Assembly (NCBI RefSeq): GCF_041381155.1
Contig: NC_091140.1
Location: 21,108,864 to 21,172,863 of the forward strand
From: Argopecten irradians
Taxonomy: Eukaryota; Mollusca; Bivalvia; Pectinida; Pectinidae
Reading direction: 5' to 3'
DNA length: 64,000 nt
Part shown: piece after piece, positions 5,423 to 57,500 of the stretch
Layout of the letters: each line of letters starts with the position of its first letter
Position numbering within the stretch: the first letter of the stretch is position 1
Notes under the pieces: generated by a model
Databases searched by the model: none
Seen by the model: the letters and a program-made list of their open reading frames with translations, nothing else
What the model was told of the DNA's origin: nothing
Position numbers and translations under genes: made by a program

Positions 5423-8400
5423 ATGATGGAGTATAGTGCATTACTTCATGGAGCTACAGGAAACCCAAAAACACAAGATGAAACAAATATTATGATTTTA
5501 GCAAAAGAGATTCATGTATTAATCCTTAGTAAACTGGATGGATTATCACTAGCAAGGGTACAGAAAGTTTGTAGACTTTGGTACGACATAGTGGATGATT
5601 TCGAGAAGTACTTCCATGTCTGGCTACGATGTTGTTTGACTGAAATATCCACCTACGATCTGGCTGAAATCACAGGACTGCTAGAGATCGATGAAAGTGA
5701 AGATTTAGTGGTCACAGCTGATAACCTGAAGAAATTACCCACAATATTTTGGAGAGAGGTGTATGCAGAGTATCACAGAAATGACTTTATTAAAAACAAA
5801 ACGAAAAAAGTGAACAAAATACAATATCCCAAATGCTATGGAATGGTCACAGCTATAAAGTTGAAAGGTAAATGCAAAAAAAAAAAAATAAATAAATAAA
5901 AAAAATTGAATTATTTGAATTGGTGTATAGAAAGACAATACTTTTTGTATTTCTTGAATGTATCATACATAATGTTAAGTACCGCGACTTATACTCCGGA
6001 AAATATGGTATACATTACTAAAAATATTAATAAAATGCTTTCATTTAATAAGGTAGACAAACAATAATCTTTTTACATTCCCATTTTGAAAATTAACAGT
6101 TTCGGTTGGAAATTTTCTTCCATAGTTAGGAGTAGTATATTTGAATATAAAATTGGCATATTGAAACTTGTACATGTATGTACTGTTGCTGTCCTGCACA
6201 CAGTTCATCCATAAAGGTCACGTTTACCTATTACAGATAACATCCTTATAAGTGGACACGAAGATGGCCGAGTGATATCTTGGGAGGACATTGATGTGTG
6301 CATCAGGAACAAAACGTGTCACCAACATCAAAGGATGGTGACAGACCTGGCTGTCACTCGGGCAGGTAAGTTGATACAGCCTGTATACATTTCATCAGAG
6401 GATGGTGACAGACCTGGCTGTCACTCGGACAGGAAAGTAGATACAGCCTGTATACATGTCATCAGAGGATGGTGACTGACCTGGCTGTCACTCAAGCAGG
6501 TAAGTAGATACAGCCTGTATACATGTCATCAGAGGATGGTGACAGACCTGGCTGTCACTCGGGCAGGTAAGTTGATACAGCCTGTATACATGTCATCAGA
6601 GGATGGTGACAGACCTGGCTGTCACTCGGACAGGTAAGTAGATACAGCCTGTATACATGTCATTAGAGGATGGTGACAGACCTGGCTGTCACTCGGACAT
6701 GTAAGTAGATACAGCCTGTATACATGTCATCAGAGGATGGTGACAGACCTGGCTGTCACTCGGACAGGAAAGTAGATACAGCCTGTATACATGTCATCAG
6801 AGGATGGTGACTGACCTGGCTGTCACTCAAGCAGGTAAGTAGATACAGCCTGTATACATGTCATCAGAGGATGGTGACCGACCTGGCTGTCACTCGGACA
6901 GGTAAGTAGATACAGCCTGTATACTTGTCATCAGAGGATGGTGACAGACCTGGCTGTCACTTAAGCAGGTAAGTAGTTACAGCCCGTATACATGTCACTA
7001 ACATTAGAAAATGGTGCCAAATTTTACCTTTTTAACAGCTTTGATAACAGTAAAAATTGGATTTGGCATGTCTTCTAACTCTACTTCTGTTGAGCCATTC
7101 AATGGCTATAGCCGTTTAAATAATTTGTGAATTTTGTTTTATCTGTGAAATATTCCAGGTCTGACAGTAAACCATCTCCTACTGGGCATAAATAACATGT
7201 TTGTCATCTCAACCTCTAAGGATTCATCCCTCATCCTTAACGACATGACAACAGGACAGTCCACAAAGATCTCTTACTTCAGCAAACAAGTCAACTCAGT
7301 CAGGTATATATAGGTCAACTCAGTCAGGTAAATATAGGTCAACTCACTCAGGTAAAATAAGGCAAATATGTTGGGTAAAATAGGTTTTTAGCTCACCTGG
7401 CCGGAAGGGCCGATGAGCTTATGTCATGGCGCGGCGTACGTCGTCCATTAGTCTGTCCGTCATCCGTCCGTCACCATTTCCTTTAAATCGTTACTAGTCA
7501 TAAAGCTCTGCATGGATTGTAACCAAATTTTGCCACAAACATTCTTGGGTAAAGAGGAGAAGAACTTGTATAAATTTTGGCTCTAAATCCCTGGGGGCAG
7601 GAGGAGCGGGGCCCAATAGGGGAAATAAAGAGGTAAATCCTATTAATCGCTACTTGTCCTAGAGTTCTGTATGGATTGTGACCAAATTTGGCCACAAGTA
7701 TCCTTGGGAGAAGGGGAACAGAACTTGTATAAATTTTGGCTCTGACCCCCCGGGGGCAGGAGGGGCAGGGCCCAAAAGGGGAATTTGAGGTAAATCCTAT
7801 AAATCGCTACTTATCCTAGAGTTTGGCATGGATTGTGACCAAATTTGGCCACAAGCATCCTTGGGAGAAGGGGAACAGAACTTGTATAAATTTTGGCTCT
7901 GACCCCCCTGGGGCAGGAGGGGCAGGGCCCAATAGGGGATTTGAGGTAAATCCTATAAATCGCTACTTATCCTAGAGTTCTGCATAGATTGTAACCAAAT
8001 TTGGCCACAAACATCCTTTGAGGAAGGGGAACAGAATTTGTATAAATTTTGGCTCTGTATCCCTGGGGGCAGGAGGAGCGGGGCCCAATAGGGGAAATAG
8101 AGAGGGTAAATCCTATTAATCGCTACTTGTCCTAGAGTTCTGTATGGATTGTGACCAAATTTGGCCGCAAGCATCCTTGGGAGAAGGGGAACAGAACTTT
8201 TAAAATTTTTGGCTCTGACCCCCTGGGGGCAGGAGGGGCAGGGCCCAATAGGGGAATTTGAGGTAAATCCTATAAATCGCTACTTATCCTAGAGTTCTGC
8301 ATGGATTGTGACCAAACTTGGCCACAAACATTCTTGGAGGAAGGTGAACAGAAATTGTATTAATATTGGCGACCCCCTGGGGGCAGGAGGGGCGGGGCCC

Positions 8401-11400
8401 AATAGGGGAATTAGAGGTAAATCCTATAAATCACTACTTGTCTTAGAGTTCTGCATGGATTGTAACCAAATTTAACCAGAAACATCCTTGGGAGAAGGGG
8501 AACAGGAATTGTATAAATTTTGGCTCTGACCCCTCGGGGGCAGGAGGGACGGGGCCAAAAATGGGAATTAAAGGTAAATCTTATAAATCGCTACTTGTCC
8601 AAGTGTTCTGCATGGGCCACAAATATCCTTGGTGGAAGGGGAACAGAACTTGTATAAATTTTGGCTCTGATCCCCTGAGGGCAGGAGGGGCGTGGCCCAA
8701 CAGGGGAATTAGAGGTAAATCTTATAAATCGCTACTTATCCTAGAGTTCTGCATTGATTGTGACCAAACTTGGCCACAAACATTCTAGGGGGAAGGTGAA
8801 CAGAAATTGTATAAATATTGGCTCTGACCCCCTGGGGGCAAGAGGGGTGGGGCCCAATAGGGGAATTAGAGGTAAATCTTATAAATTGCTACTTGTCCTA
8901 GTGTTCTGCATGGATTTTGCCCTTTGGCCACAAACATCCTTTAGGAAGGGAAACAGAACTTGTGTAAATTTTGGCTCTAACCCCCTGGGGATAGGAGGGG
9001 TGGGGCCCAATAGGGGAATCAGAGGTAAATATTCAAATTCCTTCAGAAAAGAAAAAATGAACCTGTATTCAGAACATTGGCATTACAAACCAGGTGAGCG
9101 ATACAGGACCTCTGGGCCTCTTGTTTTTTGTTGCAAAATAAGGCAACTTTGTCAGGTAAAATGAGGCACATGTGTCAGGTAAACTAGGGCAAATCTGTAT
9201 GGTAAAATAGGGCAACTCTGTCAGGTAAATATAGGTCAACTTATATGCCTATCATATACAAATAGGTCAACTCTGTATGATACAAATACAGTAAAACTCA
9301 CTTGGGTGGAACACAGTTGAATCAAATACATCGGATGAGTCTTAATTTTTCCCTTCTTTATATTAGGAACTAAAGCACAAATAAATCAAACATGGTTGAA
9401 TCGAATACTGGGGTTGAATCGAATACATTTTGTGGTCCCTTCCTTTTAAAATATACCAAAATTTACTTTTTTGTGTCAAACATTAAAAGTCAAGTCTCTG
9501 TCCAATTGACCGAACATGACTAATCAACCTTAACAGTGCTAATGAAAGTTATTGTTTGATCAAAACCTAAAGCCTCTTGTTTACACAGGTGCAAAAATAA
9601 GCCAAAATACATACATTGTACATAATATTATTTGATAGCAGTGCTGGAATAAAATGTAGCATCTTCAAACCTTCATGATTTGCGAGTTTATGTACATGGC
9701 AGACGATACATATAGGAGGAAAAAATAAATGATAATCTACGGTAAACACGAGATAAATTCTTATTAAAAATATTTTGCAATAAATTTCCTGTTGAACAAT
9801 TGTAGATTTGTTAACCTTGTCTTTCAAAAATTTGATAGAACATACATTCATTTAAAGCTATATGTATGTATCGTATAGTGCTAATGTGTTTAATAGTTTG
9901 TTGTGATCTGAATCATTCATTATTATTTAATAAATAAGTATAATACTTTCTTAGAAGATTTTCTTGTTAGTTATTGCCTGTCTTAAACCAATATGTGTGT
10001 AAAACGCCAACTTGGAAACAGTCGGTACAGTCAGTACAACAATTAGACATCAATGTCTTCGTGAACAGGAAAACACGAATGAGTCGAACCAACGGATAAG
10101 TCGAATAATTACCTGGTCCCACTGACTTCGACTTATCCGTGTTTTAATGTAGATAAACTGTACACCAATTTTCTTTTATTGACTAAACCTACAATGTAAA
10201 TGTACATCATAAATAACATTATTCAGTTCTTTTAACGGAGTTCATGACCTTGTTTATCCTGAAAATATGTCAACATACGGAGTATGAAACTGACAAGATT
10301 GCATTTTGTAGTTGTAGCGGTCTAACATTTGTGTCGGCGGCCAACTGTAGCTTCCTTCAGGGACATCCTGTGTGGGATATAGACTATTGTAGAGAGCTGA
10401 AAGCTAAACTCCGATGTCGACAGGATCTGGCTGGTCAGGACTCCACCAATATACTCGCTGTCGCTCTCCATAGAAACAAGGTGAATATTCCACCAGTATC
10501 TCTTATTAAAAGATGCTACACCCCTGACAAATGGTTTTTTTTTTCTCTACGACAAACATGAGCAGACTAATTAGTGTTAATCTTCAGTTACAAAAAGTTA
10601 CGTACGGTACTTAACACCATAACCACCATTGAAAAGTTTGAGCTTCTTATATTACTTCTAGGTAAAAATATTAAAAAATAATTAATTGCGTCCACAAAAA
10701 AGTCCATAGCACTATTTCCTATATGGAATGAAGTACTGATTATCGCATCCACCAATTGCAAGAGCAAAACAAGTAAATATCCCCTACAAAATGCATTTTA
10801 GGGGAATATTAAATTGGGCTCTGTCTGTTCGTCCTAGATTCTTTTCTGGGCTATAACTCAAAATAATGTTCAATGTAGCTCTTTGAAACTTTAGGTATTC
10901 ACCAGACAAGTGCCCTAGTTGTGCCTTTTGCTATTGCAGACCTTCAGTTTTGGGAATTTTTTCTGTTACCATGGAAACTTAGTAAAAAATACCAAATAAC
11001 TGTTTCCTTTTGTGTCCCGACTGTTACTCCAAAATCATTTAACACAGCTTTATGAAACTTTCTGAATAGTGCCCTAGTTGTACCTTTTGCTATTTGTGAA
11101 TCTTCTATTTTGGGAATTTTTTCCATTACCATGGAAACATCGTCAAAAATACCAAATTAATATTTCCTTTTGTTTCTTGGACTATATAACTCCAAAACCG
11201 TTCAATGCAGCTCCTTGAAACTTTCTGTATATATCAGACCAGTACCCTAGTTGTGCCTATTGTTATTGTGAACCTTCCATGTTAGGTGTTTAATGAAGCT
11301 TGGTCCGACCCCTAGGGTCAGAGGGGCAGGGCCTTCAAAAGGGCAATTTATTTATCAATTTTACGCTTTAACATTCCTACATCCTCGTCATACTTGGATG

Positions 11401-14400: not shown

Positions 14401-16404
14401 TTACAATATTTGCATACATAAAAAGTTATACTTGAATAATTGTTATTTTGATCTTGATGTATTTGGGTTTATATACCAACTGTGGGGCGCGGGGGATAAT
14501 GCCACGCTTTATGGCTCCTTGTTTTATATAATTTTTTGTGTTAATTAGACATACACATTCACATGTGTTAACACCAATTATTGTTCAAATGATGAGTACT
14601 GTTTATAATCTGTGGGAAGTGGAGCTTTAAACATTGTGGTAGTTATAATATGAATGGTATAACTGAAAAAGATTGGATCTAGACATGAAAAGAAAGTGAT
14701 TTAGTACTATAATATTTCTGTACTCTCTACAGGTACTGGCTAGTGATGATATTGGAAACTTGTTTCTGTACAAAGGATCATCCGAACAAAACAGGAATAG
14801 CGAACATCGGGATCAACCTGTTCTCCTGAGTATGTTTGGAGCAGCTGTCAAAACGATTCTTTTCCGCGATGATAAAGTTGTATGCTTAACAGGTGAGAGA
14901 AAAATTCAAAGTTTCCTGAACTCAACTGAGTTGACTTATTAACTGTGTCAACACAGGCATTGAAAAGTATAGAACTATATTTGACTTCTAAGAACATTAT
15001 TTCATTTTTAGCTTAAAAATCCTTGAAAATTTGCCCGTTGACTGGAAAAGGTCTCAGTTCTGTCCCCTGGCTGAGACACTGAGTCTACAAAAATTTCTGC
15101 TCCTGCTTAGCACTTGGCAAAAACAGAGTGGGCGAGTGATTTGTCTGTTGTCAATAAAGGGTAGGGTGTCACATGTGTTGTTTATAGTCTTTGACTGCAT
15201 ACTTCATAATCTCAATAAAAAAGAGCAAGAGTACCATGATTACATAGAGTCAAAACATGAATATATCTCAGCCTCCCAAAACATACAGACATTCACACAG
15301 GCAACACTTTACATACAGGCGAGTCTGTCCTTAAATTAGTCTGGCTGTTATTAGGATCATACAGACATTCACAACGGCAACACTTTACATACAGGCGAGT
15401 CTGTCTTTAAATGAGCCTGGCTGTTATTTGGATCATACAGACATTCACACAGGCAAAATTTTATATACAGGCGAGTCTGATTTCCTACTGTATGTTACAG
15501 ATGATGGAATGCTTGGCATCTCTCTGAATCTGAAGGACTTTATACAACACAATGTGTATGAAGCTGTCAATGTTATTCCTGAGTGTATCGCCTGGAGAGT
15601 CAACATATTAGCAATTGGAGCCAAGTCTGGTAAGTTTTCATCCCTTATTTCTTATTTCAATATGTATTGGAATCCTTTATTATGTTTAGTTCATCTGGCT
15701 CAAGGATCATGAAATAATTTTAACTTAAATTAGACTTTATAGCCAATCATTAAAGACAGTTTTGGACTTAAAATGTTGTTTCATGATCCAAAGAACATAG
15801 GTAAGCTTATAACATACCATTGCATTCGGTGACCGTCTTTCAACAATTATTTTCTTCATTTCGGAATATAATCAAATTTGACTGGTAGCATCCTTATAGT
15901 ACAATGATCAGGCTGACCCCCTGGGGACCTGAGGGATGGGACCAAAAGGGGTGGATTGGGCATTTTTAGCCCACCATCATCAGGATCTGGGATCTCTTGT
16001 TCAAGTTAATGACTTCTTCCCTGAAACAAAAAATTGGTTTAGCTCTCATTTACATTGGTAGTATCTCTTTTGACTGGAGATTCAAATTTGTACAAACTGT
16101 TTGTTTGATAAGCCGGGGTCCTAGGAGCGGAGCCAGAATGGTAAAATATTTCCAGATTTTTATGCAACATTTGGAAAGTTCTGTGTAAATGACTTCATTT
16201 TGGATGATTTCAGGTAAAGTTTTCCTTTACTTGGTGAAGGAAGACACTGATCTATTGGACCTAAACCTATCTGAGCCTGTCGCTGTGTACGATACAGACT
16301 CCGAACATGTTAACGCCATCACCATTGGTGATGACGGCAACGGACCAGTGTTAGCTATAGCAACAGACCATAACTTTATCACTTTGGTCAGATGGAGGCG
16401 GTGA
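5423..16404 (+). CDS. F-box / WD-repeat protein, seven coding exons
   Basis: Exons joined by phase-consistent GT-AG junctions: 5423-5867, 6237-6365, 7159-7303, 10318-10480, 14733-14892, 15501-15629, 16214-16404, giving about 453 residues. Residues about 25-75 form an F-box (IHVLILSKLDGLSLARVQKV, then CRLWYDIVDD), the Skp1-binding part of SCF ubiquitin ligases. Exon 2 onward carries WD-like blades (ISGHEDGRVISW; STSKDSSLILND; LASDDIGNLFLYK), expected to form a propeller that selects the substrate. By family knowledge it would be a cytosolic or nuclear SCF receptor; the substrate is unknown and I cannot assign it to a named FBXW subgroup. Start: first ATG of an open run after a likely acceptor near 5339. 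Odd: exons 2, 3 and 7 each seed a tandem array, and introns 3 and 4 hold large mobile elements. Possible polyadenylation signals lie at 17620 and 17815. Confidence 0.85.
6334..6990 (+). repeat. 67-bp minisatellite copying exon 2 end and donor
   Basis: Ten copies spaced exactly 67 bp (GATGGTGAC at 6334, 6401, 6468, 6535, 6602, 6669, 6736, 6803, 6870, 6937). Each unit holds the last ~32 bases of exon 2, the splice donor and about 35 bases of intron. The first copy is the real exon end at 6365. Eight of ten copies keep a GTAAGT donor; two read GGAAAG. Because 67 is not a multiple of three, use of a later donor would shift the frame. Confidence 0.95.
7288..7376 (+). repeat. 24-bp array copying exon 3 end and donor, left part
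   Basis: The end of exon 3 (GTCAACTCAGTCAG at 7303) and its donor are repeated two to three more times as diverging 24-bp units of the form GTCAACTCAGTCAGGTAAAT. The array is cut at 7390 by a 1.7-kb mobile element and resumes at about 9137. Confidence 0.8.
7390..9125 (+). mobile_element. Helentron-like non-autonomous element A (tandem-core)
   Basis: 1736 bp with no coding capacity. Head: hairpin AGCTCACCTGGCC...GATGAGCT (7390-7419), followed by a CGTCCGTC-rich tract. Core: about ten units of ~155 bp (7490-9040), each with a GACCCCCTGGGGGCAGGAG box. Tail: CCAGGTGAGC (inverse of the head arm), then hairpin AGGACC-TCT-GGGCCT and CTTGTT, ending 9125. Family knowledge: Helentron-derived non-autonomous elements carry inner inverted repeats, tandem repeats and a 3' stem-loop. 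It sits inside the 24-bp array of intron 3, which continues on both sides. The autonomous partner is not in the window. Confidence 0.7.
9137..9290 (+). repeat. 24-bp array, right part
   Basis: Continuation of the exon-3-derived array beyond element A: units such as GGCAACTTTGTCAGGTAAAA and GGCAACTCTGTCAGGTAAAT, about six, increasingly diverged to 9290. Confidence 0.7.
9288..10152. mobile_element. Possible pogo/Tigger-like MITE remnant
   Basis: Left end TACAGTAAAACTCAC and right end (reverse complement) TACATTAAAACACG form a weak terminal inverted repeat with TA at each outer edge. Inside, GTTGAATCGAATAC-like and GTCGAACC/GTCGAATAA phrases recur, as in many pogo-class ends. No transposase remains. 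Terminal match is poor, so this is tentative. Confidence 0.35.
10775..14523 (+). mobile_element. Helentron-like non-autonomous element D (composite cores)
   Basis: About 3.7 kb in intron 4 of the F-box/WD gene. Head: hairpin AATATCCCCT...AGGGGAATATT (10775-10810), then GTCTGTTCGTCC. Core is composite: ~170-bp units with TTACCATGGAAAC (about 10850-11290 and again 14040-14350), about eleven ~160-bp units with a GACCCCTAGGGGCTGAGGGG box (11290-13150), and about five 125-bp units with CCAAGATGGCCGCTGG (13190-13790). Tail: GCGGGGGATAAT (inverse of the head), hairpin GCCA-CGCTTTA-TGGC and TCCTTGTT, ending 14523. The stretch 11.5-13.2 kb is rich in single-base indels between units. Confidence 0.65.
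15268..15480 (+). repeat. Dispersed repeat, three ~73-91 bp tandem copies
   Basis: Three units of the form CATACAGACATTCACACAGG, then TTTACATACAGGCGAGTCTG, then CTGGCTGTTATTAGGATCAT. The same module occurs at about 26325-26460 with CCCAAAACATACAAACACTC, CTGGCTGGTCATAGGACG and an AAACCAAACAAAAG tail. It therefore looks like part of a dispersed SINE-type family that has become tandem here, just upstream of exon 6. Confidence 0.55.
15850..16135 (+). mobile_element. Decayed B-type tandem-core fragment
   Basis: Intron 6 of the F-box/WD gene holds about 1.5 core units like those of element B (AAATTTGACTGGTAGCATCC; GGCTGACCCCCTGGGGACCT; TGACTTCTTCCCTGAAAC) without a recognisable B head or tail. It is interrupted by a 34-bp insertion made only of C-family end sequence (15968-16001). 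Confidence 0.6.
15968..16001 (+). mobile_element. 34-bp ends-only C-family element
   Basis: AGCCCACCATCATCAG, the left head arm and loop of element C, is joined directly to GATCTGGGATCTCTTGTT, the end of the C-family tail. It lies between two pieces of a B-type core repeat that are otherwise continuous. It looks like an extreme internal-deletion derivative. Confidence 0.6.
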
Positions 16405-17110
16405 CGTGTGTCGCTGTGTACGATACAGACTCCGAACATGTTAACGCCATCACCATAGGTGACGATGGACCAGTGTTAGCTATAGTTACAGAACATAACT
16501 TCATCACTTTGGTCAGATGGAGGCGGTGACGTGTGTCGCTGTGTACGATACAGACTCAGAACATGTTAACGCCATCACCATAGGTGACGATGGACCAGTG
16601 TTAGCTATAGTTACAGAACATAACTTCATCACTTTGGTCAGATGGAGGCGGTGACGTGTGTCGCTGTGTACGATACAGACTCAGAACATGTTAACGCCAT
16701 CACCATAGGTGACGATGGACCAGTGTTAGCTATAGTTACAGAACATAACTTCATCACTTTGGTCAGATGGAGGCGGTGACGTGTGTCGCTGTGTACGATA
16801 CAGACTCAGAACATGTTAACGCCATCACCGTAGGTGACGATGGACCAGTGTTAGCTATAGTTACAGAACATAACTTCATCACTTTGGTCAGATGGAGGCG
16901 GTGACGTGTGTCGCTGTGTACGATACAGACTCAGAACATGTTAACGCCATCACCGTAGGTGACGATGGACCAGTGTTAGCTATAGTTACAGAACATAACT
17001 TCATCACTTTGGTCAGATGGAGGCGGTGACGTGTGTCGCTGTGTATGATACAGACTCTTAGCATGTTAACACCATCGCCAGTGTTAGCTAGAGTTGCAGA
17101 ATATAACTTC
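16279..17110 (+). repeat. 125-bp minisatellite copying the last exon with its stop codon
   Basis: The last ~125 bp of exon 7 (from GTCGCTGTGTACGATACAGA through TGGAGGCGGTGA) is repeated: GTCGCTG starts at 16279, 16410, 16535, 16660, 16785, 16910 and 17035. The first interval is 131 bp because the true exon has six extra bases (GGCAAC); the rest are exactly 125. Complete downstream copies keep the TGA; the last is truncated and diverged. These copies lie in what would be the 3' UTR. Confidence 0.95.
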
Positions 17111-19480
17111 ATAATTTTACTTTCCTTTCATAAGATTGATTTAAAAATATGATATGATAATCATTCCTTTTAGATACAATCGGTTGATTGAACTGAAGTC
17201 TGGGGCTGCCTTTTAAGGTTTATTTAACTTATCGATCTAGTCATATTGTAGAAGGAAGCATTGTTAGTACATTGGGCTCACTAGGAAAGCCTCAAAAGCT
17301 CACTAAGTAGAAGGCGCCTTACAATATTTTTGAGAAATATCTAGGTAAATGCTAGCCTCAATCACTAAATTAATGTTTTTAAGATATTTGTATACATTGT
17401 TTATTTTGTTACCTATTATATGTTTGTTAACTTTTGATATGTTTTGACAGATACTAGATGTATATATATGATATTTGCCTTTCATTAATTCAACATTAGA
17501 ACCGTTCGTTTTGATAAATCCATGTATCATCTTGTTTATTGTTGATTTATGTGATAAAAACAAGTCAAGAGTCTGAAATTGAAGGTTGGGTTACCTGGTG
17601 ATGCAGTTGTATTTGGGGGAATAAAAAGAATGATGAGCATAGTTGACAAGAAATGTAGTATTAAGCTGGGTTTAGAGAACAAGTGAAATGGCATTTTAAG
17701 CGAAGCATTTTGTTATTTTTTAGTCTTAAATATTTTAGTTGTTTTTAGTTGTGTTTTAAATGGCATTAGAACTTCCCGAGTTGTTCATGGTACTTGTATA
17801 TATATCCTGACTGTAATAAAACAAAAGCATTAACACATTGCTTGGTTAGAAACATTTAATCATTTTGGCTTACCGCTTGATTTTATTTTAGCTGCAGTCT
17901 CTCACTTCTAATGTGAAATTTGGAATCCTCAATTTCTAAGATATAGATGTGATATACTGTGAACAACAAGAATGTGTTAAACCTTTTGGCCTTGGTTTAT
18001 ATTTGTTTTAATTTATGCCAGTTGATATCTTTTATGTTCATTATTCACTGTAATTTGTTGTCTGTAAAATATAACTTACCTACTTATCTCCTTTGACTGT
18101 GTATGTCTCCAATATCTCAATGCAGGGGATCCTGTTTTAGGTCGAGAAAAAGAAATGGACATTGTAAATGAGTTATCCTTCCTTTTAAAATCTTGAGTAA
18201 TTTGCTCATTTGTAGCCATTGAAATTAATTTAAATTAAGCTTTAAATTTTGAAGTATTCAAGAAAAAAAAAGTTCATTTCCTAAACAGAGACACCTTAAT
18301 GCTCAAAAGAAATATTGACTGGTAAGTACTCGGCGAGCCTCTTGCTGATAGCTATGTTATAAATTCCAATTGAGATATATACTACACTTTATGTTGATTT
18401 ATAATTAGCCGCTTTGGTTTACTGTTATCTATGGTGTCCATTGACAGTTTGTGTTGGTCACATTACTTCCATACATCTGGTCCTTCTAGTCACACAAACT
18501 TCATATTCATCATATTTATATAGCTGTTAGTACCAAGAAACAAGCATTTTGTTTTGATTATATTTATGTACATTTTGTTTGATTTTCGGTTTTTGGTTAT
18601 CTTCTTAATCATGATACTGACATATTTAATGATTCATAAAGCTTCTACATGTTATAGAGATTTTATATAAGAGAGAATTGGGAGAGAGTGATAGGATGTG
18701 CCAGCCTAATATCAGTAGACTGGAAATAATCTGGTACTGCTTGTGTTTATGATTGATGCTGATGAGATGACATGAGTTTCTGGATATTCAGGTTTAAATT
18801 TTACAAATTGTATTGAGGGAGTGCAGGTACTGTAAGTAGTATAAAACATCACCTGAACAAGTGTTTTCTGCCAGTATTATACTAGATGGAGAAAGGTGAA
18901 TTCCTTTTAAAGTAATTTCTTAATGGTATAAAGAGAAATTTCAGGCGACTGTAGCAGGTCTTATGGGCCTCTTGTTAAAAGATATATAGACAACTTTTTA
19001 TTCATATTTGCCTTGTAGTTTTATAGATGTATATGTCCACATTATTGACTTGTAATGATATTTTTTTTTATTTTCTCAATTGTTGTATTTCCAGTTTTGG
19101 GAAACTTTGAGGTAATTACATTTGAGATACTATCATTTTGTAAGAAAAGGTATAAAAAATAGTTGGTGCTACTGTATTCTTACTCAAGTGAAAATGATTA
19201 AGGGAAGAGAAAGATAATGTAAAAGTTTGTAATATTATGATAAGTCATGTGATTCATTGTAGTAATATTAAGTTATGTTGACAACAAAATGTTTTTATTT
19301 ATTTACCTGTTTGAGTTTTCTGTTCTATTTTTCGAGACAAGAAAAACAAAAGAATTGACATTGACCCAAATGCATATATCTTTAATGTATATACAAGTAA
19401 TACAAATGATAAAGCATGTATAGTCATATATGGCAGCACTTACAAGGTTGTTTTAATACAGACTAGTGTTGAAAATCAAA
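17111..19480. other. 3' flank and intergenic region
   Basis: No gene seen. AATAAA motifs at 17620 and 17815 could end the F-box/WD transcript. At about 18949-18976 a decayed tail (CTTATGGGCCTCTTGTT) marks a remnant of an A/B-type tandem-core element without head or core. The rest is featureless AT-rich sequence. Confidence 0.5.
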
Positions 19481-19489
19481 TAGTTCACA

Positions 19490-30845: not shown

Positions 30846-30872
30846 GTTACCTCCTTATCAACATCACTTTTC

Positions 30873-32549: not shown

Positions 32550-32960
32550 ACATGGAGCTTTGAATTCACTTCACAGAGCACTTAGATTAGAAAAAACCCA
32601 GCTTTAAGTCCAACTCCTCCCTTCAAATCTAATTGGAGCACTACAGATGGGGAAGTTCAGTTGGAAATGTCCACTTCTAGTTTTGGCTAGCCCACCTCGG
32701 TTAGAGAATGACAACGTGAAGATCAGTTGGAAGTCTAACTCTTCAAATTTGGTTGGAGTACTAAAGGTGAGGAATTTTAACTTAAAAGTTCAGTTCTAAG
32801 TTTCAACTCCTTTCAATATGTTTGCAACACTCAGCTTGTTGAAAAAAATAATTCAGGGTACTTTTCAAACTCCTCTCTTTAGCTCTGTTTGGAGCACTCA
32901 GCAGTTAGATAAAGCAGTAGAGATTTGTGAAGCTAGATTTGATTGGAGCACTCCGCGGTG
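32550..32960 (-). repeat. Old eroded array of the CCDC138 last-exon end
   Basis: The true exon has GATTGGAGCACTCCGCGG at about 32941-32958. Related phrases follow at lower coordinates: TTTGGAGCACTCAGCAGTTA (about 32889), GCAACACTCAGC (32825), GGTTGGAGTACTAAAGGTGA (32752), AATTGGAGCACTACAGATGG (32630), CAGAGCACTTAGATTAG (32574). Spacing is irregular (~60-120 bp) and divergence high, so it appears to be an ancient tandem expansion of the stop-codon end of CCDC138. Confidence 0.55.
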
Positions 32961-35900
32961 AGATTAAACAATATAGATTTAAGGTTGAGAGCCAGAAACG
33001 CTTGTTCTGTGGCACAACCTCGTAACAGTTCCTGTATGATGGCAACTATGGTGTAAACTTCAAAGTACTTCCTGTTGGATCTAAAAGGAGGAAAAGTCAA
33101 CATTACACTGGAGAACTTTGAAATGAAGTCATTCAGGCCTGGTTCATCTATTTTTTCCTGTAAATACTACAAATTTTTATTGTATGTTCATCAAAGAGTC
33201 TTTGATGCATTGTGCAAGTGAATGAAAATAAAGTCCATTATTATTATTAATAGTTTAAACTAACATTTCTTGCATAAAATTTGATTGGTCAAATATCAAT
33301 CAAGAATCAATACATTTGTTTTATTATCAACAAACCTTTAATGATACAGTTGCTTGCAACACAGTAAACAAAACGGGAAAGGTACCAGATTCAAAATTCA
33401 CCGAAAAGTTAATTTACAATGAGAGGATGTAAGAATTTCTGGTGACTTACTTCATTTTGGAGAGTTTCTGAAGGATGATGCTGAGTTTTTCTAGTACTTT
33501 GTAATCCTGGCTGGGAGCTCGCAGGACCATGGCAATTGTCCTGAACCAAGTCTCATTACTACAGCCCTCGAGGAAGGTTTGCTGGAAAGGTGAGTCGGAA
33601 GACATCTGGAGGAATATATCCATGGCCGCTCCCATGAAGGCCTGTCATTACATAAAAACAGGTGTTAGAATTGCGCGGGCTGATGTACTGAGGCGTTTTC
33701 ATGTGATAAATGGTACATTCTAAATGGAAATGATTAACTTCATGACAGGTTTGTGGTAAACTGGAGTGAGGACTAAGTTACTTCACTGACTGGTTTGTGT
33801 TAGACTAGAGCGAGGACTGAGTTACTTCACTGACTGGTTTGTGGTAAACTAGAGTGAGGACTGAGTTACTTCACTGACTGGTTTGTGGTAAACTAGATTA
33901 GAGTGACTGGACTGTGGTAAACTAGAGTGAGGACTGAGTTACTTCACTGACTGGTTTGTGGTAAACTAGAGCGAGGACTGAGTTACTTCACTGACTGGTT
34001 TGTGGTAAACTAGAGTGAGGACTGAGTTACTTCACTGACTGTTTGTGGTAAACTAGAGTGAGGACTGAGTTACTTCACTGACTGGTTTGTGGTAAACTAG
34101 AGTGAGGACTGAGTTACTTCCACTGACTGGTTTGTGGTAGACTAGAGTGAGGTGAGGTTATGTCACTGACTGGTTTGTTGAGACTGAGTTACTTCACTGA
34201 CTGGTTTGTGGTAAACTAGAGTGAGGACTGAGTTACTTCACTGACTGGTTTGTGGTAAACTAGAGTGAGGACTGAGTTACTTCACTGACTGGTTTGTGGT
34301 AAACTAGAGTGAGGACTGAGTTACTTCACTGACTGGTTTGTGGTAAACTAGAGTGAGGACTGAGTTACTTCACTGACTGGTTTGTGGTAAAACTAGAGTG
34401 AGGACTGAGTTACTTCACTGACTGGTTTGTGGTAAGGTTAACTAGAGTGAGGACTGAGTTACTTCACTGACTGGTTTGTGGTAAACTAGAGTGAGGACTG
34501 AGTTACTTCACTGACTGGTTTGTGGTAAACTAGAGTGAGGACTGAGTTACTTCACTGACTGGGTTTGTGTAAACTAGAGTGAGGACTGAGTTACTTCACT
34601 GACTGGTTTGTGGTAAACTAGAGTGAGGACTGAGTTCAACTTCACTGACTGGTTTTGTGGTAAACTAGAGTGAGGACTGAGTTACTTCACTGACTGGTTT
34701 GTGGTAAACTAGAGTGAGGACTGAGTTACTTCACTGACTGGTTTGTGGTAAACTAGAGTGAAATGAGACTGGTTACTTCACTGACTGGTTTGTGGTAAAC
34801 TGGAGTGAGTGACTGAGGTACTTCACTGACTGGTTTGTGGTAAACTAGAGTGAGGACTGAGTTACTTCACCTGACTGGTTTGTGGTAAACTGGAGTGAGG
34901 ACTGAGTTACTTCACTGACTGGTTTTGTGGTAAACTGGGAGTGAGGACTGAGTTACTTCACTGACTGGTTTTGTGGTAAACTAGAGTGAGGACTGGGTTA
35001 CTTCCACTGACTGGTTGTGGTAAACTGGGAGGTGGGACTGAGTTACTTCATCACTGAATTTGTGGTAACTAGAGTGAGGACTGAGTTACTTCACTGACTA
35101 GTTTGTGGTTAAACTTAGAGTGAGGACTGAGATACTTCACTGACTGGTTTGTGGTAAACTAGAGTGAGGACTAAGTTACTTCACTGACTGGTTTGTGGTA
35201 AACTAGAGTGAGGACTGAGTTTACTTCACTGACTGGTTTGTGTGGTAAACTAGAGTGAGGGACTGAGAGATTACTTCACTGACTGGTTTGTGGTAAACTA
35301 GAGTGAGGAACTGAGTTACTGTCACTGACTGGTTTGTGAGGTATACTGACTAGAGTGAGGACTGAGTTATGTCCACTGACTGGTTTGTGGTAGACTAGAG
35401 CGAGGACTGAGTTATGTGTGGTAAACTGGTTTGTGGTAACTTGTGGTTACTTCACTGAAAACTAGAGTGAGGACTGAGTTACTTCACTGACTGACTGGTT
35501 TGTGGTAAACTAGAGTGAGGACTGAGTTACTTCACTGACTGGTTTTGTGGTAAACTAGAGTGAGGACTGAGTTACTTCACTGACTGGTTTGTGGTAAACT
35601 AGAGTGAGGACTGAGTTACTTCACTGACTGGTTTGTGGTAAACTAGAGTGAGGACTGAGTTACTTCACTGACTGGTTTGTGGTAAACTAGAGTGAGGACT
35701 GAGTTACTTCACTGACTGGTTTGTGGTAAACTAGAGTGAGGACTGAGTTACTTCACTGACTGGTTTGTGGTAAACTAGAGTGAGGACTGAGTACTTCACT
35801 GACTGGTTTGTGGTAAACTAGAGTGAGGACTGAGTTACTTCACTGACTGGTTTGTGGTAAACTAGAGTGAGGACTGAGTTACTTCACTGACTGGTTTGTG

Positions 35901-38900
35901 GTAAACTAGAGTGAGGACTGAGTTACTTCACTGACTGGTTTGTGGTAAACTAGAGTGAGGACTGAGTTACTTCACTGACTGGTTTGTGGTAAACTAGAGT
36001 GAGGACTGAGTTACTTCACTGACTGGTTTGTGGTAAACTAGAGTGAGGACTGAGTTACTTCACTGACTGGTTTGTGTAAACTAGAGTGAGGACTGAGTAA
36101 CTTCACTGACTGGTTGTGGTAAACTAGAGTGAGGACTGAGTTACTTCACTGACTGGTTTGTGGTAAACTAGAGTGAGGACTGAGTTACTTCACTGACTGG
36201 TTTGTGGTAAACTAGAGTGAGGACTGAGTTACTTCACTGACTGGTTTGTGGTAAACTAGAGTGAGGACTGAGTAACTTCACTGACTGGTTTGTGGTAACT
36301 AGAGTGAGGACTGAGTTACTTCACTGACTGGTTTGAGATACATTGGAATAGTTACAGGGGTGAATGAGGGTGGAGGGATATTGTTTGAGGATGTGGGGTG
36401 GGGCGAGGGTTAGGTTGAGGTACGTAAGGATGACTTGAGGGGGAGGGGGTGATGATGATGGGTGTGTGAATGTTACAATTACCTTATTGACAGGTTTGAG
36501 ATACATCAGTATAACCGGCGTAGCATGGTAGTATAGGTACAACTCCTTGGCTATATCAGACTTTAGGTCATTTCTCAGCACATCGAACACATGGGCTATA
36601 AGGTCAACTGTGTATTGAAACAAATCATAATTAGGTCATGCAATTATTGATTTTTTCATCCATATTTTACAGTGGTAAAGATGTACAAGTGAATCCATTG
36701 TACATACCAATAAACCCTAAAATTAAGATAAACAGCCCTCTGGAGCTGAAGTCCATCTGCTAATATGTTTACATGTGAGCCTCTTTAATTCAAATTTAAA
36801 TAACTTGACCATCCTGCCCAATTTAAAATATGTTCTTGATCCAAAATTTAATTTTCACAAATTACTAAGTATTCAAATAAACTTAATCAAAATTCTTGCT
36901 TACTTGAATTTTTAACGTGGTCCTGAAGACTTAATTTATCTTAATCAAGACTTTGGCCTAATGTTGTATGTTTCTTAGAGAGATAAATTTGAAATCTGCA
37001 GCAAGTGTAGAGTTTATGAATGTAAAGCCTTACCCTGACTGAGAGTCTTTAGTATGATGAGAGAGGACAGCAGACGGACATGAAGATTGGTACTCCTGAA
37101 GTACACTGTGTCCTTACTCTTGTCTGGTTTATTTAGAGGAGGGGGTAGGCTCTCTATCATCTTATCTGTGTCGGAGAATCGTACTGTCTTAGCGCGGTAC
37201 ATCTCCTCTCCTAGTCTTCGTAACGTCGAAGAAAGACTTGACTTCTAGAATGAGATCATAGTGGATTTCACAATATATCTCCTGTGAAATATTCTGTTGA
37301 CAATGAAAACTCATTTCAGGAGGGTGAGACACATTGTCCAATTTTTTGCAGACAAGAAAATAACAAATTAACAATTACTTTGAAATTACAGATATATTTT
37401 AGGATTTCCGCATGAAATCCAGCAAGCCTTACCTGTGAGCCTGGTCCATTTTCTATGTGTACTAGAGACCAGTATATAAACTGTATACATGGCAGACTGA
37501 TACGTAGATTCTGTCCGGGAAACTCCCGCAGTAAATCCACAGAGGAAGGTAAAATCTACAAATAGGTATGAATATATACAACCAATAAAAATGTATCATA
37601 TAATATATACTGTACTAGTTGTTAACAAAATAATGAATAAGTAGCTACATGTTTTTTTAATGGTAGTTTGTGTTTCTCAGAAATCTAAGAAACAGTTCAG
37701 TATGGATGATTGTTCTTGGCCTGAAAGACATGTAAAAATTGCTCTGAATGACTTGTAACAGACATGTTATATGTTGTTTATCAAGATCAATGCTCCAAAA
37801 TTACCTGTTCATGGGTAATATACCAGAAAAAACAAATTTCATATTTTAATGAATATAACCTTATCAATAAGACTGAATCTTATTATTTTCAAATATGTAC
37901 ACTTAAATGTTAATATTGATATCTATCTATTCACCTTCAGCACTTTCTCCTGGACATATTCAGGAGTAAAATGGCGGTCTGTGGGTCGAGCAGACTGGTC
38001 ACCGACTGCATATCGAAGGTGTGCATCACAAATCCAGTCCAACAGTACTCCCATTACATCAAAGGTGTACACTGGTAAAGTTACCTAAACAGAGGAAAAA
38101 TACCAATGATATTACCAAGACGAAATCACACATATCAAACGACAGTTAACTACAACAGGTCAAAAAATACCAATGATATTACCAGAACAAAATCTCACAT
38201 ATCAAACGGCAGTTACCTACAACAGGTCAAAAAATACCAATGATATTACTGGAACCTAAAACTCATGAAAATGAAGAATCTACATTTTTTTATTACATGA
38301 TACAGTAAAACTTAAACAATATCAAGACAAACCTTTGGCTGTTTGACAGATTTAGATTTCTCCTCGGCCTCTTTTTGTGGTTTCTGTTTGGGAACAGCTA
38401 GTGCCAAGTCTTTTTGTCGTTCTGCAAATTCTTGTTTTCTCTGAAACAGTACCGTTACATAATGAGGTTAGAAAGTAATACTCTACTCATCATTGTAACC
38501 CTGGTCAATACTAGTCACAATATATCTCTGAGTTAGAGTGATTTTATCTTTATCAGCTCAATCAGTTGAACGTCAGACTAGTAATCCAGAAGTTCTAAGT
38601 ACTGAAGGCAGTGATTTAAATGTGTATGGTCTGTAATTTGTTGTATTTTTGGCATAGAAAAAGTATTTGAAGTGTTCTACATATTTTTCACTGCCTCTTT
38701 AAGTTTTAAACTTTTGATATTTACCAACTTTTGTAACGTTAGCATTCGCAAAGGTATTAAACAGTTAAATTAAAAAATATTTATTTTTAGTGTGTACGCG
38801 TTTAAAATAGCTAAGAAGTATCCGAACTAGTCCGGCAATCTATTCCAGTCTGTACGTGTATTGCTGATATTGACCACACGATACGTTTCTGGAGGTTCCA

Positions 38901-41900
38901 ATCTATACAGGTATTGCCAATGTCAGTCACGTGATGCAACTCGGTTTTCCAATAGTTTGAAACACAGTGTTGACTGTCATGGTTCTTTCAAAACGTGTGA
39001 TATTTCAAGCGACATTTACCGCTAAGTCAATAGAATATTGGTGTTTTCATGGGTCTGAACCATCATATATATGCATCCATATTCACACATTGTATTATGT
39101 TTTATGAGAGTTTGTGATGGTAAAAATTACAAAAAATACAACTTTAATTCAAATGAAAATCATGCACTCTGTTACACTATTTCTACAATGAAAGGAACTT
39201 TGGTAAAATTTCATTTGATGTCCCATTCCAGTTTTGAAATAGCTGGAATACACGTGAAACATGACCTGATATACTTGTCATTATCATGTGTTTACCTGTA
39301 GATTGGTGAGACGAGACTGGACACTGACGGCCTGCTTTTCTAGCTTCTCATGTTCAGATTGTAAGGTTTCAAGCTGTCAATGGAATAGAAAGTCTCAAAA
39401 TCCCACCTTAATAAGAACTGATATAATGATACAAGCACTTCCAGCTTCCTGGATGTGTTGTATTAATGACACCTGTTACATAATTTGTGTCATTTATCAT
39501 ATCAACATTGGTAAAATAGATAATGATTATTCTAAAATCATTACCATAGAATTGCTATAAGCCCTAAAAAGGTGTAACGATCATGAGCTGATCTTTATAC
39601 TCATTTGGCTAAAGATGATAATGTAATGTAGCAATGTATTGTTGATCATCTCTCGGTCTGGAATACCCTTGTTTTTTTGTACATAATTAGAATAATTCAA
39701 ATTCCCCTAAAAGAAACAAACAAAATTACATGGTTTGGTATATCTTATCTAGTGTGGGTCCCCAACATATCTGACAGTAGTTCCATTACCTCCTTCTTTA
39801 AGGCATCATTGGCCTGTTTAAGAGTCTCAAAGTTGTCCTTAAGACGTTTATGGTCCTTTCCTTTCTCTTTTAGGGCTTGCTCCAGAGCTGCCACCTCGGC
39901 CTTGTGCTTCTGTTCACAACAAAAATGTTATAATGTGTACTTATCATAGAATAAGAACCTGGAAGGGGTATTACTAGATAAGCTAGTTTTTCTTTTCATT
40001 GAAACAATTTCTGGGCAACTTCATCTGAACTATCAAATCAATTTCAATGGCAATTACACCTGAATGTTAGGGATCATGTGTATAAACATATGTAGGTGAA
40101 CCTTTTCAGCCAGCTTATTTTTTGTTGTCATGAAAATAAAAACACTTTTCAAAATCTCAATTGTCGTGATTTTGGAAAAATTTCTGTACTAATTGCATAT
40201 TTTGCCTTTCAGTTCAATTTCTGACACTTTGTACATTGGAATGGATTGAAAAAGAATCAAACAGACAAAAATGGGAGATAACTTTGTATCCAACTCATCT
40301 ATGGCCTGTACTCCACAGACAAGGACAAAAAGGGGAGATAACTCTGTATCCTCCTCCTCTATGGCCTGTACTCCACGGACATATGTGGATAAAAAGGGAG
40401 ATAACTTTTGACATATCACCTCTTCCATAGCCTGCACTTTTTGTCTTATAGCATGGTCTGTGATGGTCTGTACACTGGCTGAGGAGATAGACACCATCCT
40501 CTCTCTTTCCTTCACTTTCTGTTCTCTCTCATACAAAATCTTGTTCTCTTCCTGAAAATACAGACATGTTTTTGATGAGATTACTCAACAATATCTCATG
40601 ATTAATGTCATTTTAAATAGCTATAAGTAGATTCTACACGTACATTTCTCGCACCTCGGACAGGGAAATCTCACATGATACCCGGTGCTAGATTTTTCTA
40701 TCTTGTCAGATCTGTCTGGTACCTTTACGCAAATTTTAGCGGAATTTTACGCCATTCATGTAACAGTCCGCGCATGTGACGTCAAACTCTCGAACCGGTG
40801 ACGTCACAAGCGTCAGATAATCAATATTATTAGAAATATGTGCATTCAGTGATTTACCATGCATTGTTTGGTTGTTGTTTTTAATTATGAAACAGTATAT
40901 ACCGATTGATCATCGTTTGTCATTGATATAACCGAACTATAGTTTTATGCGGAATGACTGAAATCGAAGTGCAGATGTAATGGTTAATCGGCTTTGAACC
41001 AGGAGGCCCATGACGGGATAGTTTTGCACTCCGAACGCGTATAAAGATGGGTTTTGTTATATCTTAGAGGCGCGAGAAAAAAAATCTATTACCTTTAAGT
41101 GATCGAGATCGGGTTATCTCAGTCTCGGGGTAAGATTTTGTTACATCCCAACCTCGGCTAACGCCTCGGTGGGGATTATGTTACAAAATCTTAGCCCTCG
41201 ACTGAGATAACCCGATCTTGTTCACTTACAGGTAACAGATTTTATTAATTCTTCTGCTGAATATATAGATAGCAATCTAAATCTTTTAAGTTGTTATCAT
41301 TCTTTAATAGACCATTTGCGGTTTCCAATAGGTTAGCGATTAGAGTGATCTCCCTTGAAACACAAAAGAGTTCCACCGGACAAAAAGTTGGCCTTTACTC
41401 ATATAATCAAATAAGAAAGTAAGCTCATTTAAAATGCTGTGTGCACTAAAATTAAATTGCTTTTGGTTGTATTTGTTTATTCAGTGCATTAAATCAAACT
41501 GAGAGATATGTGTAAAGGCTGTCAAAATATTCATTTAGCGATAAATCCTAATTTATCGTGCCCACATGCAGCCTATTTTTCGGATTCAGCTTACCTTTAC
41601 AGTACTTAATATACATTTTTATATATATACATTTGTGTGAAATGAAATGGCATATCTCATTATTAAAATATTAACGAATCGCATTTCATAGAAGTAAGCA
41701 CTTCTTATAATATAGCAGCTTCGGTAACTTGTCCGGTTGTTCCGGTTGCCACTTAGGTGTTTGCAAAGAAAATCGCTTACGTCATTGAGAACCTGCAAAT
41801 CGCCTATTAGTGTATGAATAATGAAACCTTCAAACAAATATAAAATAAACCTGAAGTAGCTGACAGGAAACAAAAATACTGGTACCTTCTAATTCATATG

Positions 41901-48799: not shown

Positions 48800-48808
48800 T
48801 CCCTGTGG

Positions 48809-53720: not shown

Positions 53721-53961
53721 AACTAGGCATCCAAGACTGATGAATTGTGGAGTGCAGTAGCAGTGGCATATTTTATAATTGTATAGCTTCATTTTTTAAT
53801 GATAATGACAAACTAAAATCCATTCTACATCAAAGATGATGTAAACAAAATGCATATATGACCTGACTGGAGTTAACACTATACAATGTATATAGCTTGA
53901 TGCTCTACAAACTTAGATACAGGTAACCCATTTCCTATCCAGTTCACATTCAACTTTATTA

Positions 53962-54553: not shown

Positions 54554-57500
54554 TTGTATTTGGATGTCCAAAACATGTGTCGTACCAGAACGCTGGTCAG
54601 CTGATTGAAATGGCTAAGTCTATCATACCTCCGCTATCGCACGACCAACACAAGGGCATGATGGGAAGGATAGGGGTAGTCGGAGGCTGTCCAGAGTAAG
54701 TTTAGTTGAATTAGATACAATCTGATCCAGGTGGCCATTGTGTAAGGCAGGTTTTATGTACTGTATTTTGATATGTATTGTTATTGTCTTTTAAACCAAA
54801 TATGAACGCTAAAGGCATGTATATGTACCATAACGATACAAATGTATAAGATCTTATGACAGAAGCACAATTGTACACTGTACATGTTTGAAAATTTATA
54901 TTTGTACAGATCAGACCATCAAAATCCTTAAAATGTTTGAAAATTTTGTTTTGTACTATATGTCAAGTAAATAAAGCGAAAGGCATTTTATCTCTCATTA
55001 TAGATACACTGGTGCACCATACTTTGCAGCCATTTCTTCACTTAAAATTGTAAGTAACAAACATTTTAATGTAATCCTGTTTTAATTTTTCTCCGAGTTT
55101 GTAATGAATTTAAATGCTTGCATTTACTAAACGAGGCTATGTAGACAATGTATTGCTGATGTTGAAATGTTATTGATGAGATATTTGATGATTTAAAGCT
55201 AAGTTTGATTTTAATAATAAATTTCTTTTTTCTTTTTTTTTTTTTTGCTCTGTGATACAAATTTGTGATTAGAATAGTGATTATGATAAGCTAGTACATT
55301 TTTATTTTGTTGTAGGGTGGTGATTTGTCCCATGTTTTCTGTACCAGAGATAAGCTACATTTTGATTTTGTTGTAGGGTGGTGATTTTTCCCATGTTTTC
55401 TGTACGAGAGATAAGCTACATTTTGATTTTGTTGTAGGGTGGTGATTTGTCCCATGTTTTCTGTACCAGAGATAAGCTACATTTTGATTTTGTTGTAGGG
55501 TGGTGATTTTTCCCATGTTTTCTGTACGAGAGATAAGCTACATTTTGATTTTGTTGTAGGGTGGTGATTTGTCCCATGTTTTCTGTACGAGAGATAAGCT
55601 ACATTTTGATTTTGTTGTAGGGTGGTGATTTGTCCCATGTTTTCTGTACGAGAGATAAGCTACATTTTGATTTTGTTGTAGGGTGGTGATTTGTCCCATG
55701 TTTTCTGCAAGAGAGATTAGCTACATTTTGATTTTGTTGTAGGGTGGTGATTTGTCCCATGTTTTCTGTACGAGAGATAAGCTAGTACATTTTGATTTTG
55801 TTGTAGGGTGGTGATTTGTCTCATGTTTTCTGTACGAGAGATAAGCTACATTTTGATTTTGTTGTAGGGTGGTGATTTGTCCCATGTTTTGTGTACGAGA
55901 GATAAGCTACATTTTGATTTTGTTGTAGGGTGGTGATTTGTCCCATGTTTTCTGTACGAGAGATAAGCTACATTTTGATTTTGTTGTAGGGTGGTGATTT
56001 GTCCCATGTTTTCTGTACGAGAGATAAGCTAGTACATTTTGATTTTGTTGTAGGGTGGTGATTTGTCCCATGTTTTCTGTACGAGAGATAAGCTAGTACA
56101 TTTTTATTTTGTTGTAGGGTGGTGATTTGTCCCATGTTTTCTGTACCAGAGATAAGCTACATTTTGATTTTGTTGTAGGGTGGTGATTTGTCCCATGTTT
56201 TGTGTACGAGAGATAAGCTACATTTTGATTTTGTTGTAGGGTGGTGATTTGTCCCATGTTTTGTGTACGAGAGATAAGCTACATTTTGATTTTGTTGTAG
56301 GGTGGTGATTTGTCCCATGTTTTCTGTACGAGAGATAAGCTACATTTTGATTTTGTTGTAGGGTGGTGATTTGTCCCATGTTTTCTGTACGAGAGATAAG
56401 CTAGTACATTTTGATTTTGTTGTAGGGTGGTGATTTGTCCCATGTTTTCTGTACGAGAGATAAGCTAGTACATTTTGATTTTGTTGTAGGGTGGTGATTT
56501 GTCCCATGTTTTCTGTACGAGAGATAAGCTAGTACATTTTGATTTTGTTGTAGGGTGGTGATTTGTCTCATGTTTTCTGTACGAGAGATAAGCTACATTT
56601 TGATTTTGTTGTAGGGTGGTGATTTGTCCCATGTTTTCTGTACGAGAGATAAGCTACATTTTGATTTTGTTGTAGGGTGGTGATTTGTCCCATGTTTTCT
56701 GTACGAGAGATAAGCTACATTTTGATTTTGTTGTAGGGTGGTGATTTGTCCCATGTTTTCTGTACGAGAGATAAGCTACATTTTGATTTTGTTGTAGGGT
56801 GGTGATTTGTCCCATGTTTTCTGTACGAGAGATAAGCTACATTTTGATTTTGTTGTAGGGTGGTGATTTGTCCCATGTTTTCTGTACGAGAGATAAGCTA
56901 CATTTTGATTTTGTTGTAGGGTGGTGATTTGTCCCATGTTTTCTGTACGAGAGATAAGCTACATTTTGATTTTGTTGTAGGGTGGTGATTTGTCCCATGT
57001 TTTCTGTACGAGAGATAAGCTACATTTTGATTTTGTTGTAGGGTGGTGATTTGTCCCATGTTTTCTGTACGAGAGATAAGCTACATTTTGATTTTGTTGT
57101 AGGGTGGTGATTTGTCCCATGTTTTCTGTACGAGAGATGCAGCCAGTGTAATCAAGTCCTATAGTCCAGAGCTAATTGTTCATCCAATACTGTAAGTATA
57201 CCGTAAAAACTCTGATAGTTTAAAGATTACGTCTTGTTCTTACCCAACTCAACGTTTTGATTTTCTCGTTGACTCATTTAGCCTCTGCTTGAATACTCTT
57301 TGTTGTATCATTAGTCCTGTTAACTTGATATAATGAGGGCTATGCTATTTTTTACTCCAATAATACTTTTAAGTAAATTCACAGCTGGAAGTTTGATTAT
57401 TAACATATCTCACTGTATATCAAGTTTATACATTGAAAAAATGATCATAGAAATATTGAAGTTTTCCCTTGTGGATTTTCTGTGTGAATATTGAGGTGTT

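What the first reader, a model, noticed from the sequence alone, without database searches (positions are those of the whole stretch)
5423..57191. Exon edges repeatedly seed tandem arrays in three unrelated genes
Seven arrays start exactly at an exon edge and copy exon sequence, in most cases with its splice site: F-box/WD exons 2, 3 and 7, CCDC138 exons at 40420, 36483 and 32933, NAXD exon at 57103. Unit lengths (24 to 125 bp), copy numbers (3 to ~58) and ages differ, so they arose independently. About 24 certain coding exons are present, so nearly a third have an array at one end. Chance placement seems unlikely because exons are a small part of the window. A process acting at exon boundaries (for example R-loops or replication pausing at splice sites, or repair from partly spliced RNA) is speculation.
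Basis: partly seen in the sequence, partly recalled or inferred. Interest (0 to 1): 0.78.

Follow-up and report, generated by a model that had tools for sequence, protein, structure and literature searches.

The report
Exon-edge tandem repeats in scallop genes
In this scallop-like genome the junction between an exon and its intron is sometimes copied several to dozens of times in a row into the intron, a structure called a "mirage" in amphioxus; it looks like the harmless by-product of a genome that duplicates short DNA all over, but it yields natural genes carrying many near-identical decoy splice sites.

Summary
The arrays are real. Of the seven named, five copy a splice junction (two of them decayed) and two copy the end of the coding sequence, not an exon edge. 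They straddle the edge: in four measured arrays the unit reaches 14-40 bp into the exon. The host assembly could be sampled: among 152 splice edges chosen only by Pfam matches, 11 (7%) carry such a copy; the same test gives 4 of 35 in the window (6 with the two decayed ones), so the window is not significantly exceptional.

Enrichment depends on the null. Edges are not repeat-covered more often than random noncoding positions (7.2% against 11.6%). Counting each noncoding array once, edges exceed expectation 4-5 fold (bootstrap 95% CIs spanning 1.7-9.7), of which up to twofold could come from the conserved exon copy. Simplest explanation: frequent local tandem duplication, plus selection leaving the working junction at one end. 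A dedicated boundary process is not shown. The structure is a known kind, the amphioxus "mirages". What looks new is its frequency in a mollusc and an array with 29 intact decoy acceptors.

The parts
6326..6997 (+). 67-bp x 10 array of exon 2 3' end plus donor (F-box/WD gene); authentic exon 6237-6365 holds the first copy
   Evidence: edge 32-mer recopied with 0 edits; 7 of 9 decoys keep the GT at the aligned place, 6 of 9 score as high as the real donor
7290..7385 (+). 24-bp array of exon 3 3' end plus donor (exon 7159-7303)
   Evidence: (7 edits)
9131..9245 (+). continuation of the exon 3 array beyond an inserted 157-bp repeat array
   Evidence: unit found with 2 edits of 24 (random mean 9.0)
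15282..15479 (+).
   Evidence: (3 edits); 2 of 2 decoys intact
16278..17080 (+). 125-bp x 6.4 array of the coding end of exon 7 including the stop codon; not a splice edge as far as can be told
55295..57138 (+). 61-bp x 30 array of NAXD acceptor plus first 36 exon bases; authentic exon 57103-57191 holds the last copy
   Evidence: 0 edits; 29 of 29 decoys score as high as the real site; 29 of 29 intact
40264..40441 (-). decayed 60-bp array, about 3 copies, of CCDC138 exon 3' end plus donor (exon 40420-40551)
   Evidence: 20 edits in 60, 0 of 500 shuffles; only 10 edits of 32
33737..36508 (-). 44-bp array, about 58 copies, whose decayed start resembles the donor of CCDC138 exon 36483-36608
   Evidence: 21 of 59 copies keep a GT at the aligned place; only 10 edits of 32
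32870..32980 (-). one or two decayed copies of the CCDC138 coding end (exon 32936-33080) in the sequence after the stop
   Evidence: not a TRF array

Best explanation
These are mirage-type minisatellites: short genomic segments that straddle an exon-intron junction were tandemly duplicated in place and then expanded, as happens to other sequence in this repeat-rich scallop genome. Duplications inside exons are removed by selection; a duplication straddling the junction is tolerated as long as one intact junction stays attached to the full exon. So the surviving array has the working junction as its exon-side end copy and lies otherwise in the intron. Shown: the anatomy, the local origin of the three units tested, recurrence at 11 of 152 sampled splice edges, near-absence inside exons. 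Inferred: neutrality, growth by unequal exchange or slippage, and that splicing keeps using the end copy. A modest excess at edges (about 2-5 fold) remains; it may reflect longer detectability of a copy whose partner is conserved, or a somewhat higher duplication rate there.
For: Edge self-comparison is bimodal: 8 of 152 sampled edges have 2-4 edits to a copy on the intron side, 3 have 8-9, the other 141 have 10-15. Alignment against the whole locus finds further copies of these 11 edges on the intron side at offsets of about 60-220 bp, repeated at near-regular spacing in most, one extra copy only at L057, L058 and L097, weakest at L046; about 4-60 exon bases are carried. Exon centres: 0 of 218 tests at <=7 edits, 1 of 218 at <=9. 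Three units are local to their gene. Arrays are frequent outside edges too: 33 in the myosin loci, 0.34 per kb, two of them counted twice in overlapping loci; tandem repeats are the largest repeat class, 21.7%, in another scallop (PMC10225492, passages). Array units are not GC-richer than noncoding sequence (0.31 against 0.333, P=0.18), so exon-like composition is not what makes an array.
Against: No RNA data were available, so use of the end copy is not shown. Exon edges were inferred from HMM matches and splice scores, without transcripts.
Confidence: 0.72

Rival explanations
1. A process tied to splice junctions (R-loops, replication pausing, chromatin at exon borders) raises the rate of tandem duplication there.
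For: 4.3-5.3 fold excess over the array-counted null, bootstrap lower bounds 1.7-2.5; donors and acceptors both affected (7 of 71 and 4 of 81).
Against: No spike at the edge in the 1/copy-number profile; raw coverage at edges is not above noncoding sequence; in the window two coding ends without a known splice site also seed copies (exon 7 and, weakly, CCDC138).
Confidence: 0.25
2. Repair templated by partly spliced RNA or cDNA copied exon ends into introns.
For: None found; only the fact that exon sequence is copied.
Against: In the units that I read, the copied exon piece adjoins its own intron flank, and I saw no exon-exon join; no systematic search for such joins was made.
Confidence: 0.03
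3. The arrays are copies of dispersed satellite or transposon units that happened to land at exons.
For: Transposon-like arrays of 155-162 bp do occur in the window, and one has a very similar consensus elsewhere (locus L019).
Against: The exon 2, NAXD and exon 7 units match only their own locus in the whole assembly, and the units contain the exon's own coding sequence.
Confidence: 0.02
4. The extra splice sites are kept because they do something, for example slow or regulate splicing, or supply new introns and exons.
For: Decoys are often intact at the aligned place: 29 of 29 (NAXD), 25 of 25 (L062), 7 of 9 (exon 2), 5 of 5 (L093), 4 of 4 (L085); intron gain from such repeats is proposed for amphioxus globins (PMC3087553, section 16) and for a potato gene (PMC4974935, abstract).
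Against: Young arrays would look intact without selection; others have lost decoys (L092 0 of 5, L054 0 of 1, CCDC138 exon 36483 21 of 59); at L062 all 25 decoys score below the real site; unit lengths such as 61 and 67 bp break frame.
Confidence: 0.08

Closest known systems
'Mirage' minisatellites of amphioxus (Adh3, globins BflGb6 and BflGb9, troponin C; similar repeats in PGBD5)
   Same: [quoted passage not shown] PMC3902484, one passage).
   Different: A mollusc, not a cephalochordate; up to about 58 copies and 29 intact decoys; found at 11 of 152 sampled splice edges; splicing and instability not tested here.
[quoted passage not shown] potato RdRp case)
   Same: Tandem duplication of a segment crossing an intron-exon boundary, carrying splice signals (PMC4974935, abstract).
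   Different: Here the duplicates lie in existing introns; no new intron is demonstrated.
Internal tandem repeats that modify human gene structure (PMC2812944) and human introns from tandem arrays (Zhuo 2007)
   Same: Tandem repeats overlapping gene structure.
   Different: The first seen only in search listings, the second only as a reference (not held); no detailed comparison made.

Membership tests
Mirage minisatellite | Tandem repeat unit spans an exon-intron boundary | tested here: met
   4 of 35 window edges and 11 of 152 sampled edges in the 32-bp test, two more decayed window edges with longer queries
Mirage minisatellite | Both acceptor and donor boundaries can be duplicated | tested here: met
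   Sample: 7 of 71 donors, 4 of 81 acceptors; window: 2 donors and 2 acceptors clear, 2 donors decayed
Mirage minisatellite | Many but not all copies keep AG/GT signals | tested here: met
   From 29 of 29 (NAXD) to 0 of 5 (L092)
Mirage minisatellite | Regular splicing is undisturbed (RT-PCR) | not testable with these tools
   no RNA data
Mirage minisatellite | Length and somatic instability | not testable with these tools
   one assembly only, no reads or second haplotype
Mirage minisatellite | End copies excluded from homogenisation | tested here: inconclusive
   Exon 7 (coding end): authentic copy 89-90% like the five full copies while the array has 96% matches; NAXD: a query reaching into the authentic copy is 100% identical to 6 other stretches of the array
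Intron gain by tandem duplication | A new intron is spliced between the duplicates | not testable with these tools
   needs transcripts and a relative without the intron
Dispersed satellite or transposon array | Same unit at many places in the genome | tested here: not met
   Three units searched, each only at its own locus; the DNA search skips very common words and scores only best candidates

The most novel reading that the evidence does not exclude
In this genome splice junctions are true hot spots of tandem duplication (roughly 2-5 times the intron rate), so that a large share of genes carries arrays of near-identical decoy splice sites, making it a standing source of new introns and exons and a natural experiment on how the spliceosome picks one of up to 30 identical sites.
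Probability: 0.25. Interest if true: 0.8.

Novelty: new member of a known kind. Interest (0 to 1): 0.5.

Why it matters
It carries a little-known structure, met in these searches only in amphioxus papers, over to molluscs and gives a first frequency: 11 of 152 sampled splice edges, 10 of 51 sampled gene clusters. Such arrays are test objects for two open questions: how splicing chooses among identical sites (NAXD has 29 decoy acceptors scoring as high as the real one), and whether tandem duplication of junctions feeds intron gain. They also warn that gene prediction and read mapping in scallop genomes may go wrong at such exons.

Tried and rejected
Rejected or left open: (1) exon-like GC content as the reason for arrays: 33 array units have mean GC 0.31 against 0.333 in noncoding sequence, P=0.18. 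(2) The window as a special hot spot: like for like 4 of 35 against 11 of 152, Fisher P=0.49; 4 of 35 against 8 of 152 at <=7 edits, P=0.24, and 6 of 35 with the decayed ones against 11 of 152, P=0.10. (3) ORF 19335-19504 as a proven further exon beside the 19505-20310 array: no Pfam match. (4) Coding ends as a second test set: of 32 sampled, 1 at 6 edits and 2 more at 9, with three offsets tried each; not decisive. (5) A peak at the edge in the distance profile: not seen when weighted by copy number. (6) Papers on such repeats in molluscs: searches (0 papers; 1; 51 hold the terms, 12 listed; 1; 13 hold them, 12 listed; 2) showed none that I recognised as reporting it; beyond passages of PMC10225492 and PMC2206037 I judged by title and abstract start. 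Searches were for the human and intron-gain papers, 44 for the word mirage.

Dropped before the count of 152: of 123 HMM matches, 34 were left out (14 AMP-binding genes of single-exon type, 20 kinase matches with an open frame over 700 bp); of the 89 kept (41 myosin, 37 kinesin or dynein, 11 kinase), 25 edges without a site scoring over 0.5 were left out; of 153 edges one had too little flank. The 37 kinesin and dynein stretches have only 140-170 bp on each side, which can only lower the count at edges. A first mapping left minus-strand loci unflipped, corrected before any edge count; one search stopped with an error and was rerun. One search accepted a GT or AG within 4 bp; its counts of intact decoys were replaced (exon 2: 7 of 9, not 9 of 9; L093: 5 of 5, not 2 of 5; CCDC138 exon 36483: 21 of 59, not 57 of 59).
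Full report
What is there. The window lies in an assembly of 845.8 Mb in 1508 contigs (G000) that can be searched. Parts of two exons of a muscle myosin elsewhere in it (L037, L042) give 167 of 167 residues identical to the myosin chains 1dfk and 1dfl; that these come from bay scallop is recalled, so I take the genome to be of a bay scallop or a close relative. The genes at the arrays are an F-box/WD gene (F-box and weak WD-type matches), CCDC138 (CCDC138_C, E 2.6e-49) and NAXD (NAD(P)H-hydrate dehydratase). A fourth gene, called HSPA12-like from recall, has no copy at its six tested edges.

The arrays. Two CCDC138 donors, at 40420 (60 bp, about 3 copies) and 36483 (44 bp, about 58 copies), are decayed: they fall in the background of the 32-bp test and beat shuffles only with longer queries chosen after looking. 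Exon 7 and the last CCDC138 exon copy the coding end with the stop codon. In four arrays measured, the unit takes 14 (exon 3), 36 (NAXD), 39 (exon 6) and 40 (exon 2) exon bases, so the arrays straddle the edge and do not begin at it. The exon 3 array continues beyond a 157-bp transposon-like array, so it is older than that insertion (inference). The exon 2, NAXD and exon 7 units match nowhere else in the assembly.

Is it a property of the genome? I took exons chosen only by Pfam matches: protein kinase (30 best loci of 142 matches), myosin head (30 best loci of 82 matches), kinesin (20 of 130 rows, about every sixth, fetched) and dynein N1 (17 of 57 rows, picked over the list by hand, fetched). 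Splice edges were inferred from the reading frame and a splice score. For each of 152 edges the 32 bases around it were compared with up to 500 bases on the intron side. Eleven edges have a copy with at most 9 edits, eight of them with at most 4; the other 141 lie at 10-15. Alignment against the whole locus shows further copies on the intron side for these eleven, carrying about 4-60 exon bases, for example 60 bp x 26 at a myosin acceptor (L062) and 59 bp x 3.5 at a kinesin donor (L094); L057, L058 and L097 have a single extra copy and L046 is the weakest. They fall in 10 of 51 gene clusters. Tandem Repeats Finder alone flags 5 edges. In the window the same test gives 4 of 35, not significantly more (P=0.49).

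More than chance? Two nulls answer differently, and both are reported. Plain coverage: a noncoding position in the myosin, kinesin and dynein loci has such a copy in 7.7% (<=4 edits) or 11.6% (<=9) of tests, so 11.7 and 17.6 edges were expected and 8 and 11 seen; edges are not more repeat-covered than noncoding sequence. Array-counted: an array of n copies is taken to be born from one unit, and only that unit can be the exon's, so each noncoding hit is weighted by 1/n. Then 1.0-1.5% of noncoding positions lie in founder units, against 5.3-7.2% of edges: a ratio of 4.3, 5.3 and 5.0 at the three thresholds, bootstrap 95% CI 1.7-8.7, 2.3-9.7 and 2.5-8.4 over gene clusters. It may still overstate the excess, because at an edge one partner is held constant by selection, so a pair stays recognisable up to twice as long (my argument, not a measurement); with that factor Poisson P is 0.025, 0.013 and 0.009. 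The 1/n-weighted profile from exon to intron rises from near zero inside the exon to the intron level without a peak at the junction; in that profile the edge itself is also weighted. So a moderate excess is likely; a dedicated boundary process is possible but not shown.

How it most likely works. Short segments are tandemly duplicated in many places of this genome (33 arrays, 0.34 per kb, in the myosin loci, two counted twice). Inside exons such events are rarely seen: 0 of 218 exon-centre tests at <=7 edits, 1 of 218 at <=9. A segment crossing the junction can be copied without harm, provided the complete exon keeps one junction; that copy is then the exon-side end of the array. This explains why donor arrays lie downstream and acceptor arrays upstream of their exon (the edge test looked only on the intron side, in the whole locus). 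That splicing ignores the decoys is inferred; in amphioxus RT-PCR supports it (PMC3087553, section 16). Decoys are often intact: 29 of 29 in NAXD, 25 of 25 in L062, 7 of 9 at exon 2, but 0 of 5 at L092 and 21 of 59 at CCDC138 exon 36483. In NAXD all 29 score as high as the real site, in L062 all 25 lower. From the sequence, using a NAXD decoy would add 61-bp units that shift frame and soon reach a stop (read by eye).

What is known. 'Mirages' are tandem repeats across exon-intron boundaries in amphioxus Adh3 and globins (PMC3087553, passages and section 16), and, as cited there, in troponin C, with similar repeats in PGBD5 (PMC3902484, one passage). The globin authors propose them as a route to new introns. 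The original Adh3 paper is not held. The search for mirage with minisatellite listed 8 papers; I looked into the two amphioxus ones and judged the other six by the listing. Searches with mollusc, scallop and bivalve terms showed none that I recognised. The present case is therefore a new member of a known kind, in a new phylum as far as these searches go.

Limits. Exon edges rest on homology and splice scores, without RNA; the sample is conserved genes; assembly errors in arrays cannot be checked without reads.

Noticed in passing
window 19505-20310: 52-bp array whose unit holds an AG|GTAAG junction and begins right after an open frame (19335-19504); that frame has no Pfam match, so it may be another exon-edge array or an array of proto-splice sites.
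   Followed up: partly
window 7386-9130: A 157-bp repeat array sits inside the exon 3 array and splits it; a very similar 157-bp consensus occurs in locus L019 3123-3762.
   Followed up: partly
window 589-2028: Long open frame that looks like the integrase part of an LTR retroelement (name from recall).
   Followed up: no
L038 1-437 and L050 1-258: Arrays whose units contain acceptor-like sequence (pyrimidines then AG) in myosin loci; may be mirages of exons not annotated here.
   Followed up: no
L021 2398-3794: Long array with 27-bp (in-frame length) units next to a kinase domain match.
   Followed up: no
window 31262-31847 and 30872-31215: Two adjacent arrays (34 and 43 bp) between genes with partly similar units.
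   Followed up: no
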